Positions 54,766 to 62,387 of a DNA stretch of 64,000 nt are shown piece by piece. The notes below the pieces were generated by a model. It saw only the letters and a list, made by a program, of their open reading frames with translations, made no database searches and was not told the origin of the DNA. The translations under genes and the position numbers were made by a program. Each line of letters opens with the position of its first letter. Positions within the stretch are counted from its first letter, which is position 1. This stretch comes from Bradyrhizobium sp. CB1650 (GTDB taxonomy: Bacteria > Pseudomonadota > Alphaproteobacteria > Rhizobiales > Xanthobacteraceae), in assembly GCF_029761915.1 (NCBI RefSeq), contig NZ_CP121695.1:4493501-4557500 (forward strand), written 5' to 3'.

Positions 54766-55659
54766 CTACTGGCGCGCGATTCGGTGATTTTTTCGAACCG
54801 GCTTGCGTCCGTTGGCGGTGACCACGACGTGGATCGGCTTTGAATAGACCGGAGGATCGTGCGGCACGTGGTTTTCGTCGGCCAGGACGAGCTGTAACGT
54901 GTGGCGACCCAAGGGCAGGGTGACTTTGGCTTCGGTTTGACCGGCACCGAAATGGAGATGGTTGAAGTCATTCGGTACCGGCTGGTCGAACGACGGCAGG
55001 CTGGTATCGATCAGCAAATGATGGTGACCGGTATTTTGTTTTTCGAAGCCGGCGGGGGCGACGCCCATTCCGACGAGTCCGAAACGGACGATGGTCGTCG
55101 GCGTTATGTACGAACCATTCTCGGGGTAAACGAAATAGACTTTGGCTCCCGCTGGCGACGGGTGGCGTCCCGCACGCGGTGCTGCTTGAGCCGACGGCGC
55201 AGCAGCCGAGTCCACGACGTGAACATGGATACGGTCCGAGAACAGCGGTGCTGTATTCGGAACGTGGTTCTTGTCGCCCAACAGCAACTGCAGAGTGTGA
55301 TCTCCCGGCGGCAGGGTCACTTCTGCTTCGGTCTGACCTGCACCAAAATGCAGATGATTGAAGTCGTTTGGAATGGGACGGTCCAGCGGCGGAAGCTCGG
55401 CATCGATCAACAGATGATGATGACCGGAGTTTTCCTTGTCGGAGCCGGCCGGGGCGACCCCCATTCCCTTCAGGCCAAAATGGACGGTGAACTTGGTCGG
55501 GACGGTCTGCCCATCCTTGATATCCACGAAGTAGACCGCAGCGCCGGCGGGAGCGGGTGAGGGACCGCCGGCGGGTTTTGATTGCGCATGTGCTGAGCCG
55601 AACGCCCCCGCGACAATCAGGAGGGACATCGTCATTGCGGCCAAGGCGTTTGATACCAC
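54766..55659 (-). CDS. Exported protein with two tandem DUF4399 domains
   Basis: A 297-residue protein with a signal peptide to SAHAQ. Two copies of the same domain lie in tandem (about residues 38-150 and 170-282). Each has AxVYFVxxxxG, FGLxGMGVAPAG, TGHHHLLIDxxLP or SGHHHLLIDAELP, PNDFNHLHFGAGQTEA and HTLQLxLxDxNHVPH. The His-rich HHHLLID and HLHFGAGQTE segments could bind metal. DUF4399 proteins are normally single-domain. Function unknown; presumably periplasmic. Confidence 0.85.
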   Translation of the reverse strand: MVSNALAAMTMSLLIVAGAFGSAHAQSKPAGGPSPAPAGAAVYFVDIKDGQTVPTKFTVHFGLKGMGVAPAGSDKENSGHHHLLIDAELPPLDRPIPNDFNHLHFGAGQTEAEVTLPPGDHTLQLLLGDKNHVPNTAPLFSDRIHVHVVDSAAAPSAQAAPRAGRHPSPAGAKVYFVYPENGSYITPTTIVRFGLVGMGVAPAGFEKQNTGHHHLLIDTSLPSFDQPVPNDFNHLHFGAGQTEAKVTLPLGRHTLQLVLADENHVPHDPPVYSKPIHVVVTANGRKPVRKNHRIARQ

Positions 55660-55684: not shown

Positions 55685-56911
55685 TCAACAACGGCGTACG
55701 TTGAAATCTACACGACGGTCGATCGCATCGCTGGCATCATCGCGGCCGGTCCCGACAATGGATTCCCGGGATCCGACGCCGATGGCCTTCAACCTGTCAG
55801 CCAGACTGGGAGAGGCACTTTGGAGGAGATCCTTGATAAACTGGGCCCGCAGCACCGACAGGCGTTCATTGACCTGTGCCGGTCCGGTATTGGATGTGTG
55901 GCCGACGACATCGATGCAGGAATTGTTCTGCATTGCCTGTGTCGCGATTTGGCTTAGCCACATCGGATATGGCCCGGTGATATTCGGGTCATCAAGAAAC
56001 TGCGTGGTGCCCGGCTTGAACAGAAGCCGCACGGACAACCTGTTGGCCGCCAGGCTGTATTTCACGAGACTGCCAAATGCCTCGGTGGCATCGGTCCGGC
56101 GGTTGAGCTTCCAGCTCGAAAGATAGATTCCGGAATGAACGCGAAGCTGGTCGCCGCCCGACATGTGCAGCGCCGTGCGGTAGAATGCCAGAGCCTCCCG
56201 ATAACGCTTGTCGTCATATTCGAGAATGGCATCGCTCACAAAGGCGGAGGTGGCGATCCTCTCGACATAGAACGGATCAATCGGGTCACCCGGCTTCGAG
56301 CCCTGACAGGTTTTGATGTAGGCAGTGATCGCCGGATCATTGGTCCAGATCGGAGCGTCGGCGAAGGTCGGCGTTGGATCGGCCTTGACGCCTTCGGGCT
56401 TTGCCCGTGCGACGCCCTTCGACACGATGCTCTTGCTGCGAAGGTCTGCCAATGCAAGGCAGATCCGGTAGGCATCGCGAACGCCGTCAGCCGCGCCGGC
56501 ATTGTTGACCGCGGTAAAAGTGCCGATCAGGACAACGGGAGCCCGGCTCAGGGCCTCGCTGGAAAATGGCCGCACCACGAAGCGGGGATAGGACTTGGTT
56601 ACGAGGTCCTTGATCCGCTCCTGCATCAAGCGGGTTGCTGCTGATTGTGCGCCGGTCGCCGCATCGATCAAGGGATCGATGACAAGTTCGATCTTGTCCG
56701 AACCCGCGGGCACCGTGGCCTTGGAGAAGAGATCGTTGGCCGCCCGCAACAGAGCGTCGTCGAAAGGGATCGGCGTGGGCGGTGGGGCCGGCGCGCTTTG
56801 CGGCGCCGGGGGCGCCTGCGGGACTGGAGGCGCCTGCGCAAAGCCCGGCTGGATGGTCGTCAGCAGGAAGCCGATCGCGCACCATGTGACGATTGGACCG
56901 CGATCCATCAT
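55685..56911 (-). CDS. OmpA-family C-terminal domain lipoprotein-like protein with CsgG-like N-terminal part
   Basis: A 408-residue exported protein. After a signal peptide and an Ala/Pro linker comes a domain (residues about 50-200) with IELVIDPLIDAATGAQSAAT and APVVLIGTFTAVNN, reminiscent of CsgG/LpoB-like folds. The C-terminus has an OmpA-type peptidoglycan-binding domain, CIDVVGHTSNTGPAQVNERL and further on SDAIDRRVDF. It probably sits in the periplasm and binds the cell wall. It is 26 bases after the caspase-like gene on the same strand, so both are likely co-transcribed. Confidence 0.8.
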   Translation of the reverse strand: MMDRGPIVTWCAIGFLLTTIQPGFAQAPPVPQAPPAPQSAPAPPPTPIPFDDALLRAANDLFSKATVPAGSDKIELVIDPLIDAATGAQSAATRLMQERIKDLVTKSYPRFVVRPFSSEALSRAPVVLIGTFTAVNNAGAADGVRDAYRICLALADLRSKSIVSKGVARAKPEGVKADPTPTFADAPIWTNDPAITAYIKTCQGSKPGDPIDPFYVERIATSAFVSDAILEYDDKRYREALAFYRTALHMSGGDQLRVHSGIYLSSWKLNRRTDATEAFGSLVKYSLAANRLSVRLLFKPGTTQFLDDPNITGPYPMWLSQIATQAMQNNSCIDVVGHTSNTGPAQVNERLSVLRAQFIKDLLQSASPSLADRLKAIGVGSRESIVGTGRDDASDAIDRRVDFNVRRC

Positions 56912-56937: not shown

Positions 56938-58377
56938 CTAACGACATTGTCGAAGGGCAGTACGGTCGGATTCCGATATGTCACCCAGTTGCGCACGCGC
57001 ATTGATTTCCTGGCAGCTGGACGTCGATTTCTGGCGAGTTGGCGTCGTGGTTCCTCTTGCGTCGAGCGCAACGGCCGGCAGCCGGGCAGTTTCGACCGCA
57101 AGGCGCTGCTCGGCTCGTTCGCGGTCCGATTGCGTCTTCGCAAGTCTCTCTGCCATCGCACGCTCCAGCGACGCGCGCTGCTCGGCCAATCTGGCTTTGT
57201 TGGCTTCAAGTGCCGCAACTTCATTTGCCAGCCGGTTACGCTCCCCGGCATCAGGCTCGGGAGGCGGGGCCGCGGGCGATTGCGCTGGCGCAATTGAGCT
57301 CAATCGCTTTTCCTCGTCGGCTCGCCTGAGTTCGTCGCGTCGGCGCAATTGAGCCAATTCCTCGCTGGCTTTTCGAAAGCCGGCTTCGGCCTGTTCCAGG
57401 TCGAGCCGAAGCTGCCGTTCCTTCTCGGTGTATTCGTTGACCAATCGCTCACGTTCGTTGGCATTCTCGATGGTATCGATTTGAGCGCGGGCGGCATCGA
57501 CCAGGCTGCTCGATGGAAACTTCGCGATGAACGCCTTCAAGGTGACCACGCTCGCAGAAGACAATGGCCCCATCTTCTTCCAGGCGATGAGGTCGCTCTC
57601 CTGAGGATTCAGATAAAAATCGCCGAGCAGGGAGACCGAGAGCTCCGGGGTCTGTTGTCCGCGTGTGTCACGATTGACGCTCACGGCGACACGTCGAAAC
57701 AGCGCGCCGACTTCTATGCCCGGCTCCTGCATCTCGCGAACCAGTGCGGTCGTAAACGGACTGTTGCGGCCGGTGCCATCGGCCGCCACCGCATTTGGTT
57801 GCGTCGCGTAGGCGATCAACATGCCCTGGGTTCGCTCGATCCGGGCAAGGCCTCGGGTCATTTCGCCGCCGCGCGTACCACTGCGTTGGGCAACAGCCTT
57901 GGCGAACGGATTGGTCCGGCAGGCATCCAGGACCAGAAGCCGAGTCCCCGCGGTATATCCAAGCGCGTCGATGACATCTTCGAGCTTGAGCAACTCGAAT
58001 GTCACGATCGAGTCGGGGTCGACCTGGGCATCGACGGGGACGAGATAGTTCTGACCATCAATCTGAAGCCCATGGCCTGAATAATAGAACAGCGCGGCTT
58101 CGGTGCCCTTCAGCTTCTGTGCGAAGCGTGCCAGCACGCTGCGCATGCCGCGGCTATCGAGATCGCGTCCGTCGACGACCTCGAACCCGAGGCGTCGCAA
58201 TTGATCGGAGATGTCGTCGGCGTCATTGCGGCTGTTGCGAAGCAGCGGAGCGTTGGCATACGCCGCGTTGCCTATGACCAGCGCGACGCGTCCCTGGGCG
58301 CGTGCCTCTGACACAGGCAACAGAGACAGGCAAATCGAACAAGCAATAAAAAAGCAAAGCGTGCAAACGACCTTCAC
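56938..58377 (-). CDS. Caspase-family (C14) peptidase with coiled-coil tail, exported
   Basis: A 479-residue protein. Signal peptide ends near VSEARAQ. The caspase domain (about residues 30-265) has the catalytic pair intact: His102 in YYSGHGLQ and Cys153 in LVLDACRTNP. A linker and a long coiled coil follow (NERERLVNEYTEKERQLRLD; EANKARLAEQRASLERAMAE), ending with a Cys-containing tail. Metacaspase-like proteins of this type cleave after basic residues. Its gene is divergent from the caspase-FGE fusion. Confidence 0.9.
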   Translation of the reverse strand: MKVVCTLCFFIACSICLSLLPVSEARAQGRVALVIGNAAYANAPLLRNSRNDADDISDQLRRLGFEVVDGRDLDSRGMRSVLARFAQKLKGTEAALFYYSGHGLQIDGQNYLVPVDAQVDPDSIVTFELLKLEDVIDALGYTAGTRLLVLDACRTNPFAKAVAQRSGTRGGEMTRGLARIERTQGMLIAYATQPNAVAADGTGRNSPFTTALVREMQEPGIEVGALFRRVAVSVNRDTRGQQTPELSVSLLGDFYLNPQESDLIAWKKMGPLSSASVVTLKAFIAKFPSSSLVDAARAQIDTIENANERERLVNEYTEKERQLRLDLEQAEAGFRKASEELAQLRRRDELRRADEEKRLSSIAPAQSPAAPPPEPDAGERNRLANEVAALEANKARLAEQRASLERAMAERLAKTQSDRERAEQRLAVETARLPAVALDARGTTTPTRQKSTSSCQEINARAQLGDISESDRTALRQCR

Positions 58378-58565
58378 GGACGAAATTCCGCCAAATAGAT
58401 GCTAGGTCACGCCGATGACTTGACCTTAGGGGGAATCGGCGCAGCCCGCAACTTCTTGTTTCCATGCAGCCAACGTGTTAGCCTCATTAGCATATTCGTA
58501 CATTGCGCCCGGTTGTTTGCTTCAGCCTAAGTAAACCGCTCCGATCAAGGAGCCGGTGCAGGGAG

Positions 58566-58625
58566 ATTTGCGCCAGAATTTTATGCTGATCCAAGTCTGG
58601 GCATTTGCGCCAATCCAAGTCTGGG
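58566..58625. repeat. Short tandem-like repeats before the caspase-FGE fusion
   Basis: ATCCAAGTCTGGG occurs at 58589-58601 and 58613-58625, and ATTTGCGCCA at 58566-58575 and 58603-58612. The repeats lie in the 260-base divergent region between two caspase-type genes, immediately upstream of the second. They may be regulator-binding sites, but no regulator is nearby to assign. Confidence 0.4.
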
Positions 58626-58637
58626 GCAGATGAAATT

Positions 58638-60380
58638 ATGAAATTGTCAGGCATAGGCCGCATCCTGGTTTTGTGCGCCACAGTAACTGCAACATCCTTC
58701 TCTCAGCCCTTTTTCCTGTCGGCCGCGCAGGGCCAGAACGTGAGCGCTCCCGACGCCGGCAAGAGAGTCGCTCTCGTCGTCGGAAATGGATCTTATCCGC
58801 TGTCGCCTGTCCGAACGGCAGTTGCAGATGCGAAGGCGATCGCCGAGCTTTTGAAGGCTGGTGGGTTTGACGTGATTTACGCGCAGGATGCGGGGCATGC
58901 CGATCTGGATTCTGCCATCAAGCAGTTCAGTCAGAAGCTTGAACGCGGCAGCACCGCGGTCGTCTATTTCGCCGGTCATGCCATCCAGTATGAAGATCGC
59001 AATTTGCTTGTACCGGTTGACGGCGCCATTGCATCGGATGCCGACATTCGTTCCAACACGGTGGACGTCGATCTCATTCTCGATCCGTTGATCGTTTCCC
59101 GCCCCAGAGGTTCGGTCGTCATTCTTGATGCCGCGAGGAAAAATCCGTGGCAGCAAAAGACGTCGGTCAGGACAACCGGGCTCGCCAGTGTAGGTCCGAT
59201 CCAGGGCATTACCCAGGCTTACCCTGCATCACCCGGGCAGGTCGTGGAGGACCAAAAGGGACCTGTCGGGCTGTTTGCCGGCGAGTTCGCAAAGGCCGCC
59301 AAGGTCCCTGATCGAACCTTGAAGGAAGCATTTCGTCAAACTCGAGCAGCGGTCGCAAAGGAAACCCGCAATAAGCAGGTCCCATGGGAAACGTCGCTCG
59401 ACACCGTGGATTTCGTCGTTATGCAGCGCGCCGAACCGACTGACATGGCGTCGCGCGCGGTCTCGCGCTTGGGCCCGTCGGATGCGGTCGAGCAGGGTTT
59501 TTGGGATACGATCAAGGGTGGTGATAGCGCAGCCGATTTTCAGGCTTATCTGGATGCCTATCCGAACGGTCCGTATGCATCGCAGGCGCGGTCGCACCTT
59601 CAACGCCTGGGCGCGTTGAGCAGCCCGGCAAAGCCGCAGACTGCGCCCAACACACCGCCGCCGACGATACGCGACTGTCCACAATGCCCAGAGCTTGTCT
59701 TGATACCTTCGGGCAGCTTCAACATGGGTTCAACCGAGGTCTTTCCTTTTGAAGGTCCCGTGCATCAGGTGTCTATCCGCAAGCCCTTTTACATGGGGCG
59801 ATACGAAGTCACCTACGAAGAGTGGGACGCATGTGTCATGGATAGGGGCTGCACCTACAGGCCGGACGACGCCGGAGCGGGACGCGGCCGTCGTCCCGTC
59901 TCGGATGTGGACTGGAACGACGCAAAGACCTACGTTGTGTGGCTATCGCAGAAGACAGGCAAGATGTATCGGCTGCCAACCGAAAGCGAATGGGAGTATT
60001 CCGCCCGAGCCGCGACCAGCTCAGCCTATCCCTGGGGGCGGTCGGTGGACAAGGACCGGGCGAATTGCTCGGGCTGCACCAGCGAACCACGCAACAACAC
60101 CGTCGAGGTCGGATCGTTCAAGCCGAATGCATTCGGTCTTTTTGACATGGCCGGCAATGCCGCAGAGTGGGTCGAGGATTGTTGGAACGAGGGCTATCGT
60201 GGGGCGCCCACGGATGGGTCCGCGTCTGTCAAACCCGGTTGTCGCGAGCGGGTGCTTCGCGGCGGCTCATTCAACAATGACCCGAAATATCTGCGTTCAG
60301 CGGCGCGCTTCAAATACGACTTCAACGTGCGGTACCTCGCAAATGGATTTCGCGTCGTTCGCGAGAAGGACGGCGATTAA
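58638..60380 (+). CDS. Exported pseudo-caspase fused to an FGE-sulfatase (SUMF1-type) domain
   Basis: A 580-residue protein. Signal peptide is followed by a caspase-like domain (about residues 40-270) with RVALVVGNGSYPL and VVYFAGHAIQYEDRN. His114 is kept, but the catalytic Cys is replaced: LDAARKNP has Ala166 (GCG at 59133-59135) where active relatives have LDACR. A linker (about 280-345) leads to a formylglycine-generating-enzyme fold (IPSGSFNMGS, YRLPTESEWEYSARAA, NAFGLFDMAGNAAEWVED, RVLRGGSFNNDPKYLRSA). The FGE catalytic Cys expected after RGGSW is Asn/Asp here. Both domains thus look non-catalytic, so a sensing, binding or regulatory role is likely. Start at 58638; ribosome site weak. 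Confidence 0.88.
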   Translation: MKLSGIGRILVLCATVTATSFSQPFFLSAAQGQNVSAPDAGKRVALVVGNGSYPLSPVRTAVADAKAIAELLKAGGFDVIYAQDAGHADLDSAIKQFSQKLERGSTAVVYFAGHAIQYEDRNLLVPVDGAIASDADIRSNTVDVDLILDPLIVSRPRGSVVILDAARKNPWQQKTSVRTTGLASVGPIQGITQAYPASPGQVVEDQKGPVGLFAGEFAKAAKVPDRTLKEAFRQTRAAVAKETRNKQVPWETSLDTVDFVVMQRAEPTDMASRAVSRLGPSDAVEQGFWDTIKGGDSAADFQAYLDAYPNGPYASQARSHLQRLGALSSPAKPQTAPNTPPPTIRDCPQCPELVLIPSGSFNMGSTEVFPFEGPVHQVSIRKPFYMGRYEVTYEEWDACVMDRGCTYRPDDAGAGRGRRPVSDVDWNDAKTYVVWLSQKTGKMYRLPTESEWEYSARAATSSAYPWGRSVDKDRANCSGCTSEPRNNTVEVGSFKPNAFGLFDMAGNAAEWVEDCWNEGYRGAPTDGSASVKPGCRERVLRGGSFNNDPKYLRSAARFKYDFNVRYLANGFRVVREKDGD

Positions 60381-60857: not shown

Positions 60858-62387
60858 TCAATCGATCGGGGCCTTGATGATGCGGATGAACTCTGGCCTG
60901 ACCCATCGCATCGGTCCTATCCCTTGACCGGACAGCAGGCCCAGATTGTCCTGGGTCGCGGCGACGGTCTGGAACAAATTGGCCGTGCTGTTGTCGGCGG
61001 GCCAAACCATCGCCGCCGTGGCGTTGTACGGGTTGATCGATGAATCGAGTTTTACCACGGGCACGCCGAGGAAAAAGGCATCAGTATCCCCGTGGGACGC
61101 ATCAGCCTCATTTGACATCTCCCAATCCACCTCGTTTGTCTGCCACGATCCAAACTGGAAATAGTTTATCTTGTCCGGCGGCCAGAGATAGTAAAAGCGT
61201 GGCGTCATACCGGCCGGAACGTCCAGCACTTCCTTGCTGAACATCTTGTCGTCGAATCCCGCCCGTCCGCTAAACTTGACGCGCACCACCTTTTCTTTTC
61301 CGGGACGGAACGTGGCCAATCCAGCGATGGTCGTGCCGAACGGAAGCTTCAGTCTCTTGATGTCCGCCGGCGCCCTGGGTTTCAACCATATTCTGTCGCC
61401 GACGTCGGATCTGCCCGCAGCGATACGTGGCCGCGATTGCGCGTCGCGCAAGGCATCGTCGACGTTGAGGCCATAGCCGACCTGGATGCTCTGGAAGATC
61501 GTCACCGTATCAATCGCACTCTCGTCATCGCCTTGGTTCTTCGCATAGGAAATCAACACCAGGGCGCCGAGTTGCGGGTCCGCACTGAGCCGCCGCGTCA
61601 CTTCGGGGAGCCAGTGTGACGTCCACTCGGCTTCGAAGCGACGGGCCTGGATGCCGTTGTTGATCTTTTGCAAGACGAAATTGGCGCCCTGAAACGCCAG
61701 AGTGGCCCCCTGGAATTTGGCGTCCCCGCGTGCATTGGGACCGAACTCCTGCACGGGCGCGATTGGTGTGCCGACCTCGCTTGTCGTTTTCTCCTTCGTT
61801 TGTGCGCCGCCGGACGGCGGGCTGGAAGGGCCGCCCTTGTTGGGGCTGGTCTTGACCGGGCTACTCTGCATCATGCTCAACGGTTTCAATCCCATGAGCT
61901 TCCTGGCCTGCGCGATACTTTCGGTGCCGCCCTTTCCCTTGATCTGGGACTCCCGAGCCAGCGGGACCCCCAGGTTCGCGGCTTGTTTGGCGAGCCGCTC
62001 ATCGAGTGTCCACAAGCGTGCGTTCATGCTCTTCGCTTCTGCCGCGATGAACGCGTCGCCGGGCCTTGTCTTGCCTTTGCCCCCGTATTCCCTGACGGAA
62101 CCTGGCTCTCCTACCTTGGGCTCGTGAGTAATGTTGTCGGCGTAGAAATCGCCCCGATCCTTGATGCTGGAGGCAGTCGCCGGCGGGGTCGTGATCTTCA
62201 GATCCTGAAGCAACTTCTCGTAGCCTATGCGCGTCTCGATCGGAGAATCCAGCACCAATTCGTTGTATGCCGCGTGCGCGATATAGACCGGCTCTCCCGA
62301 CCCAAGAACGCGCTGCAATGCCTGAGCCACGGCTACGTTGCCGCGCGCAACATCCTTGATGACGTTCTTGTCCAGAAGAATGGTCAT
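60858..62387 (-). CDS. PIN-like domain fused to an uncharacterised C-terminal region
   Basis: A 509-residue protein. The first 150 residues look like a PIN nuclease: MTILLDKNVIKDVARG (Asp6), GDAFIAAEAKSM (acidic) and LWTLDERLAKQAANLGVPL (acidic), then an Ala/Pro/Ser-rich linker. The C-terminal roughly 300 residues (ALAFQGANFVLQKINNGIQA; SADPQLGALVLISYAKNQGD) match no family I recognise. Full-length PIN toxins are about 130 residues, so this is a fusion, perhaps of a polymorphic-toxin or effector type. There is no antitoxin-like gene beside it. The role is unknown. Confidence 0.6.
   Translation of the reverse strand: MTILLDKNVIKDVARGNVAVAQALQRVLGSGEPVYIAHAAYNELVLDSPIETRIGYEKLLQDLKITTPPATASSIKDRGDFYADNITHEPKVGEPGSVREYGGKGKTRPGDAFIAAEAKSMNARLWTLDERLAKQAANLGVPLARESQIKGKGGTESIAQARKLMGLKPLSMMQSSPVKTSPNKGGPSSPPSGGAQTKEKTTSEVGTPIAPVQEFGPNARGDAKFQGATLAFQGANFVLQKINNGIQARRFEAEWTSHWLPEVTRRLSADPQLGALVLISYAKNQGDDESAIDTVTIFQSIQVGYGLNVDDALRDAQSRPRIAAGRSDVGDRIWLKPRAPADIKRLKLPFGTTIAGLATFRPGKEKVVRVKFSGRAGFDDKMFSKEVLDVPAGMTPRFYYLWPPDKINYFQFGSWQTNEVDWEMSNEADASHGDTDAFFLGVPVVKLDSSINPYNATAAMVWPADNSTANLFQTVAATQDNLGLLSGQGIGPMRWVRPEFIRIIKAPID

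What the first reader, a model, noticed from the sequence alone, without database searches (positions are those of the whole stretch)
58638..60380. Caspase-like domain with its catalytic Cys replaced, fused to an FGE fold also lacking its Cys
His114 is kept but the LDACR motif reads LDAAR (Ala166). In the FGE part the stretch after RGGS is FNNDPKY, without the Cys of true formylglycine-generating enzymes. The protein is exported and divergent from a caspase with an intact His-Cys pair (56938-58377). The two could form a sensor-effector pair in which the dead partner binds a ligand and controls the active one, similar in logic to caspase pseudoenzymes elsewhere.
Basis: partly seen in the sequence, partly recalled or inferred. 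Interest (0 to 1): 0.75.

Follow-up and report, generated by a model that had tools for sequence, protein, structure and literature searches.

The report
Paired dead and live bacterial caspases
A caspase-like protein that has lost its cutting residue sits beside an intact caspase in all thirty related gene clusters that were read, which suggests that these bacteria keep a dead and a live copy as a working pair outside the inner membrane.

Summary
In detail: 58638-60380 encodes an exported Peptidase_C14 domain (His114 kept, Ala166 at the Cys position) fused to an FGE-fold domain without FGE's Cys pair. Cys is missing in 347 of 348 caspase-FGE rows from three capped searches. In 30 of 30 distinct loci read, window included, the dead domain lies beside a separate His-Cys caspase and DUF4399. 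Among 265 genomes of the genus the fusion and the orthologue of the window's active caspase occur in the same six. The missing FGE cysteines are ordinary in this branch. The dead domain is not a copy of its neighbour; it groups with other dead caspases. Its FGE groups with free-standing FGE proteins, 25 of 26 of which also sit beside DUF4399 and an active caspase. Dead bacterial caspases and caspase-FGE fusions are in print; our ten searches showed no account of this pairing. Most likely FGE plus DUF4399 senses, and the dead domain is an adaptor to the live caspase. Binding and activity are untested.

The parts
58638..60380 (+). pseudo-orthocaspase-FGE fusion, 580 aa, signal-like N-terminus
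58761..59396 (+). Peptidase_C14 domain, residues 42-253; His114 codon 58977-58979, Ala166 (Cys position) codon 59133-59135
   Evidence: likely pocket residues Asp64 and Asp205 mostly kept
59490..59603 (+). conserved 'GFWDTIK..DFQAYL..YPNG' repeat between the domains, residues 285-322
59682..60362 (+). FGE-fold domain, residues 349-575; nearest solved structure PvdO (5hha)
60258..60290 (+). RGGSFNNDPKY, where true FGE carries its Cys pair
58378..58637 (.). 260-bp divergent intergenic region
   Evidence: aligned with three relatives
56938..58377 (-). orthocaspase with intact His-Cys dyad, signal-like N-terminus
   Evidence: orthologues
55685..56911 (-). protein with C-terminal OmpA domain and signal-like N-terminus; also found in the relatives except the three Methylobacterium-type loci and one short contig
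54766..55659 (-). protein with two DUF4399 domains and signal-like N-terminus; neighbour of this FGE branch

Best explanation
The gene encodes a periplasmic sensor-adaptor of a conserved four-gene cluster. The FGE-fold domain, working with the DUF4399 protein, recognises a ligand or state in the periplasm. The pseudocaspase domain keeps the caspase fold but cannot cut, and it docks on the separate active orthocaspase and sets its activity, in logic like FLIP(L) and caspase-8. The OmpA-domain protein, where present, ties the assembly to the cell wall. Shown by sequence: signal-like N-termini, fold assignments, conserved loss of Cys, conserved linkage, shared presence. Inferred: ligand sensing, caspase-caspase contact, direction of control, the OmpA anchor.
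For: Cys absent in 347 of 348 caspase-FGE rows while the domain is still recognised. Separate His-Cys caspase plus DUF4399 in 30 of 30 distinct loci (29, and the window), with gene order varying. Fusion and orthologous caspase present in the same 6 of 265 genus genomes, one of them on broken contigs. dN/dS against the nearest relative about 0.19 for the dead domain, so it is under purifying selection, versus 0.07 for the FGE domain and 0.07 for the active caspase domain. Free-standing FGE relatives sit beside DUF4399 and an active caspase in 25 of 26 loci. FGE proteins with a cyclase-type N-terminus have DUF4399 next to them in 21 of 21 loci, so FGE + DUF4399 looks like one unit with exchangeable outputs. 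Eight of eight loci of the order whose FGE carries its own intact caspase have no DUF4399. Likely S1-pocket Asp kept in 102 of 115 and 98 of 114 sequences.
Against: No binding, structure or activity result. The loci are related by descent, so the counts are not independent events. Free-standing FGE loci lack the dead domain, so the cluster exists without it, and one free-standing FGE (L286) has neither partner. SH3-FGE loci have DUF4399 but no caspase within about 6-8 kb (3 of 3), one further FGE locus (L282) has DUF4399 without caspase and one (L281) neither. The dead domain evolves faster than its live neighbour (mean pairwise distance 0.50 versus 0.31). In one locus the live caspase lies in two frames (L351). 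PMC6426788 argues that prokaryotic pseudo-orthocaspases most likely do not regulate true ones.
Confidence: 0.5

Rival explanations
1. The pseudocaspase is only a structural adaptor that holds the FGE domain to DUF4399, OmpA or the envelope; it serves the same pathway as the active caspase but never touches it.
For: Its place N-terminal to the FGE is taken by other modules or by nothing elsewhere (SH3, cyclase, none). It is the less conserved of the two domains (49 of 212 against 112 of 232 columns at 95% or more).
Against: It is a caspase fold next to an active caspase in 30 of 30 distinct loci (and the window), and the SH3 version has no caspase nearby.
Confidence: 0.25
2. The fusion is a substrate of the active caspase: cutting in the variable linkers frees the FGE domain.
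For: Linkers 254-284 and 323-344 are among the most variable parts. PMC6426788 reports a trypanosome pseudo-metacaspase that is processed by a true one.
Against: Only 1 of 31 and 1 of 22 linker columns are at least 95% one residue; no cleavage-site search was made. Free-standing FGE proteins with no domain to remove occur beside an active caspase.
Confidence: 0.12
3. The FGE domain is an enzyme of PvdO type and the caspases are accessory to it.
For: PvdO is the closest solved relative (5hha, E 2.8e-50) and the FGE domain is the most conserved part.
Against: It scores 193 bits against a PvdO cut-off of 500. The Cys pair of FGE is absent. The same hit list holds PorK and a Treponema variable protein, which I recall as non-enzymatic.
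Confidence: 0.1
4. The protein has a role of its own unrelated to the neighbour, as proposed for cyanobacterial pseudo-orthocaspases.
For: PMC6426788 makes that argument; deletion of one in Synechocystis raises tolerance of oxidative stress (PMC7889975, abstract).
Against: The linkage and shared presence reported here.
Confidence: 0.03

Closest known systems
Bacterial pseudo-orthocaspases (PMC6426788)
   Same: Peptidase_C14 fold with the His-Cys dyad replaced; common in Rhizobiales; the His-Ala combination is named there
   Different: Its main text mentions FGE once, for archaeal proteins (figures not seen), and the sections read (12, 13, 18) give no gene-cluster analysis; here the fusion is tied to an active caspase and DUF4399
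Metacaspase-FGE-sulfatase fusions (PMC3501461)
   Same: Same two domains in one protein; FGE in 33 of 671 sequences, one FGE fusion listed with the dyad lost
   Different: No clade or neighbour of such fusions in the passages seen
FLIP(L)-caspase-8 (PMC7586951, abstract)
   Same: A dead caspase that tunes a live one
   Different: Human, a paralogue of the caspase it tunes; here the dead domain is not close kin of its neighbour, and only the logic is alike
FGE-fold domains of DGR and conflict systems (PMC7159879, PMC10907252, passages)
   Same: FGE/C-type-lectin fold proposed as ligand sensor or effector alongside caspase- or trypsin-type peptidases
   Different: Here the FGE is strongly conserved rather than diversified, and the proteins have signal-like N-termini
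PvdO (PDB 5hha)
   Same: Closest solved FGE-fold relative; also no FGE Cys pair in the aligned stretch
   Different: Window protein is far below the PvdO equivalogue cut-off

Membership tests
pseudo-orthocaspase | Peptidase_C14/p20 domain | tested here: met
   PF00656 E 6.5e-27, 95 bits, cut-off 21.4
pseudo-orthocaspase | one or both dyad residues replaced | tested here: met
   His114-Ala166
pseudo-orthocaspase | no p10 domain | not tested
   no separate p10 model was run
pseudo-orthocaspase | no proteolytic activity | not testable with these tools
   needs purified protein
formylglycine-generating enzyme | two active-site Cys after the RGGS motif (position recalled; pair seen in other FGE genes of the genome) | tested here: not met
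   RGGSFNNDPKY; no row printed carries the pair
PvdO | NCBIfam equivalogue cut-off of 500 bits | tested here: not met
   193.4 bits
EACC1-associated caspase | NCBIfam cut-off of 140 bits | tested here: not met
   35.2 and 52.8 bits for the two caspases
FLIP-like pseudocaspase | close paralogue of the caspase it regulates | tested here: not met
   dead domain groups with dead caspases, not with the neighbour (quick tree)
FLIP-like pseudocaspase | contact with the active caspase that alters its activity | not testable with these tools
   structure jobs were not accepted; no assay possible
DGR-diversified FGE/CLec sensor | hypervariable positions in the C-terminal FGE region | tested here: not met
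   112 of 232 FGE columns at least 95% one residue among 120 sequences; RGGS region nearly constant
DGR-diversified FGE/CLec sensor | reverse transcriptase gene nearby | not tested
   no search made

The most novel reading that the evidence does not exclude
Rhizobiales carry a periplasmic signalling cassette in which an FGE-fold + DUF4399 sensor unit is plugged into different outputs: across the membrane into an adenylate cyclase, or, through a purpose-kept dead caspase, into a live caspase. That would be a bacterial dead/live caspase switch outside the cytoplasm.
Probability: 0.3. Interest if true: 0.82.

Novelty: new variant of a known kind. Interest (0 to 1): 0.62.

Why it matters
What prokaryotic pseudo-orthocaspases do is an open question, and one survey argues that they most likely do not regulate true orthocaspases (PMC6426788). 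A dead and a live caspase held together in a small conserved cluster makes the opposite idea directly testable with two or three proteins. The FGE + DUF4399 pair with changing outputs also gives a handle on DUF4399, a term that our library search found in three papers, once each (listing only), and on why FGE-fold proteins of this branch lack FGE's cysteines.

Tried and rejected
Rejected: that the dead domain is a decayed tandem copy of 56938-58377; the caspase tree puts it in a pseudo-only group (quick search, SH-aLRT support only, several long branches; two further dead rows, L006 and L171_m3, fall among the His-Cys rows). Rejected: that the missing FGE cysteines are a second, linked loss; they are the norm in this branch. 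Rejected: one long DUF4399-caspase-FGE protein in the Bosea-type loci; in the 999- and 864-aa open frames the stretch before the fusion's own Met does not read as DUF4399, which lies in other frames. Rejected as general: that DUF4399 always accompanies FGE. In other orders of the class 0 of 19 DUF4399 loci have FGE or caspase nearby (19 of 34 other matching genomes fetched), and 14 of 14 FGE loci from outside the order checked had no DUF4399. PADLOC gave only weak caspase and MotB-like hits. Ten literature searches showed no description of the cluster in their listings; the library lacks most subscription papers. The FGE tree leaves open whether the dead domain was gained twice or lost once.

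Counts need care. Rows come from searches seeded by this protein family, with listings capped at 120 rows and 8000 candidates scored per search. Of 43 matching genomes of the second genus 21 were examined, and of 5 in the third 3, L047 being taken as G1027 by its 100% match. Only 30 of the match rows were given loci, several of them the same genes as. L048 and L359 lie on contigs of one length (106406) and were counted once. L207's His was not read by the pattern. The cyclase label is a loose pattern (20 loci; only 7 of 30, where loci cut the N-terminus); Pfam confirmed one, and the own-genome one was read by eye. SH3 was confirmed by Pfam for L276 only.

Full report
What is there. The frame 58638-60380 (+) encodes 580 residues: a signal-like N-terminus, a Peptidase_C14 domain (42-253), a short conserved repeat (285-322) and an FGE-fold domain (349-575). 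His114 is kept; the Cys position is Ala166. The FGE end reads RGGSFNNDPKY, without the Cys pair of true FGE. Divergent from it, across 260 bp, lies 56938-58377 (-), an orthocaspase with SGHG and LDACR intact, followed on the same strand by an OmpA-domain protein (55685-56911) and a protein with two DUF4399 domains (54766-55659). All four begin with a hydrophobic stretch and show no later one, and the FGE part has eight invariant Cys in 29 aligned sequences, in keeping with the periplasm. The genome has 16 Peptidase_C14 matches; names of homologues point to Bradyrhizobium.

Is the loss real and old? Among the 119 homologues listed besides the window protein none has Cys: Ala 95, Ser 16, Gly 5, Thr 3; five have Tyr for His. 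Two more searches seeded with distant relatives bring the set to 348 caspase-FGE rows, the window's own included: 120, 115 and 113 by search, with Cys in 0, 0 and 1 (P0346); seven further rows without a caspase domain were set aside. In the third set the His is lost too in 112 of 113 (Tyr-Ala in 72). The fold is nevertheless kept: against the nearest relative dN/dS is about 0.19 for the dead domain, 0.07 for the FGE domain and 0.07 for the active caspase domain. Two acidic positions are Asp in 102 of 115 and 98 of 114; that they line the pocket rests on my alignment to P0002 and on the description in PMC6426788 (passages).

Is the active caspase linked? Yes. In 265 genomes of the genus, full-length fusions close to this one occur in five, and a sixth has it in pieces on two contigs. 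Orthologues of 56938-58377, at 62% identity or more, occur in the same six; the next match by score has 40% identity (280 bits against 374 for the weakest of the six). Gene neighbourhoods were read in 30 loci (29 distinct, since L048 and L359 appear to be one genome) plus the window. Each has a caspase domain without Cys, a separate caspase with His-Cys, and DUF4399. Blemishes: in L360 the dead caspase and the FGE lie in separate frames, in L351 the live caspase lies in two frames, and L204's contig ends before the FGE. OmpA is present except in the three Methylobacterium-type loci (L047, L279, L361) and L204. Gene order changes: DUF4399 lies behind OmpA in the window type and upstream of the fusion in others. 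Distances of dead and live caspases among 26 loci correlate (Spearman 0.90), which common descent alone could give. A random gene would have one of 16 caspase genes within 5 kb in about 1.7% of cases.

Where did it come from? In the caspase tree the dead domain falls in a group of dead caspases only (26 rows, SH-aLRT 93; its own 22-row clade 100), away from the neighbour. In the FGE tree its FGE clade (22 rows, 98) joins free-standing FGE proteins of the same genus plus a Methylobacterium fusion (47 rows together, 98), away from FGE domains fused to intact caspases. The free-standing FGE genes lie divergent from DUF4399 and an active caspase in 25 of 26 loci (exception L286). The active partners belong to at least two branches. 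So the constant core is FGE + DUF4399 + an active caspase; the dead domain is an added or lost extra.

FGE + DUF4399 as a unit. FGE proteins with a cyclase-type N-terminus have DUF4399 next to them in 21 of 21 loci, the own genome included (labels by pattern, one confirmed by Pfam). From the other side, 30 of 30 DUF4399 loci given for the genus have an FGE gene adjacent (these overlap), while 0 of 19 in other orders of the class do. SH3-FGE genes have DUF4399 but no caspase nearby (3 of 3), and 8 of 8 loci of the order whose FGE carries its own intact caspase have no DUF4399. Two loci fit no class: L282 has DUF4399 without caspase, L281 neither. The pattern suggests a sensor unit with exchangeable outputs, and a caspase supplied either in the same chain or by a neighbour.

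The FGE cysteines. Three other FGE genes of this genome carry the Cys pair, but 0 of 83 anchored FGE frames in the 80 loci do (11 frames without anchor left out). The closest solved structure is PvdO, followed by the kinase ToxD and FGE itself; a Treponema variable protein, PorK and SUMF2 are also hit. Lack of the pair is therefore ordinary here, and argues for binding or another chemistry, not for a second 'dead enzyme' event.

Mechanism. I favour a periplasmic sensor-adaptor: FGE with DUF4399 senses, the dead caspase contacts and sets the live one. Signal-like N-termini, fold, linkage and conservation are shown by sequence; contact, ligand and direction of control are inferred. Rivals are a passive adaptor, a substrate of the live caspase, a PvdO-like enzyme, and an unrelated role.

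Known work. PMC3501461 (passages) reports FGE as the fifth commonest partner domain (33 of 671) and one FGE fusion with the dyad lost. PMC6426788 (abstract, sections 12, 13 and 18, passages) names pseudo-orthocaspases, finds 561 of 582 alphaproteobacterial ones in Rhizobiales, lists His-Ala among the common variants, and argues against regulation of true orthocaspases. PMC7889975 (abstract) gives a stress phenotype for one. PMC7586951 (abstract) covers FLIP(L). PMC7159879 and PMC10907252 (passages) treat FGE/C-type-lectin domains as effectors or sensors in conflict systems. None of the ten search listings showed the cluster described here.

Limits. No structure could be predicted. Trees are quick ones. 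All counts come from related genomes and capped lists.

Noticed in passing
58589-58601 and 58613-58625: Direct repeat ATCCAAGTCTGGG in the divergent intergenic region; two of three relatives keep one exact copy and a degenerate second. Stretches CGCAACTT.TTGTT and CGTGTTAGC are shared by all four regions compared.
   Followed up: partly
L274 (own genome, second DUF4399 locus): A cyclase-like domain, a membrane-like stretch and an FGE domain in one protein, with DUF4399 beside it; many relatives in the genus.
   Followed up: partly
own genome, L006, L008, L010, L014: Four further Peptidase_C14 loci lack the dyad (Tyr-Ala, Tyr-Ser, Phe-Ser, Tyr-Ser); L006 lies about 5 kb beyond the window end.
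   Followed up: no
L132, L133 (own genome): An FGE gene with the Cys pair appears split between two frames.
   Followed up: no
L360 and L351: In L360 the dead caspase and the FGE lie in two overlapping frames; in L351 the live caspase does.
   Followed up: no
60858-62387 (-): 509-aa frame without a Pfam or NCBIfam match; its start looks PIN-like by eye.
   Followed up: no
L201: Three caspase-FGE genes with intact Cys and a further FGE gene in a row, in another family of the order.
   Followed up: no
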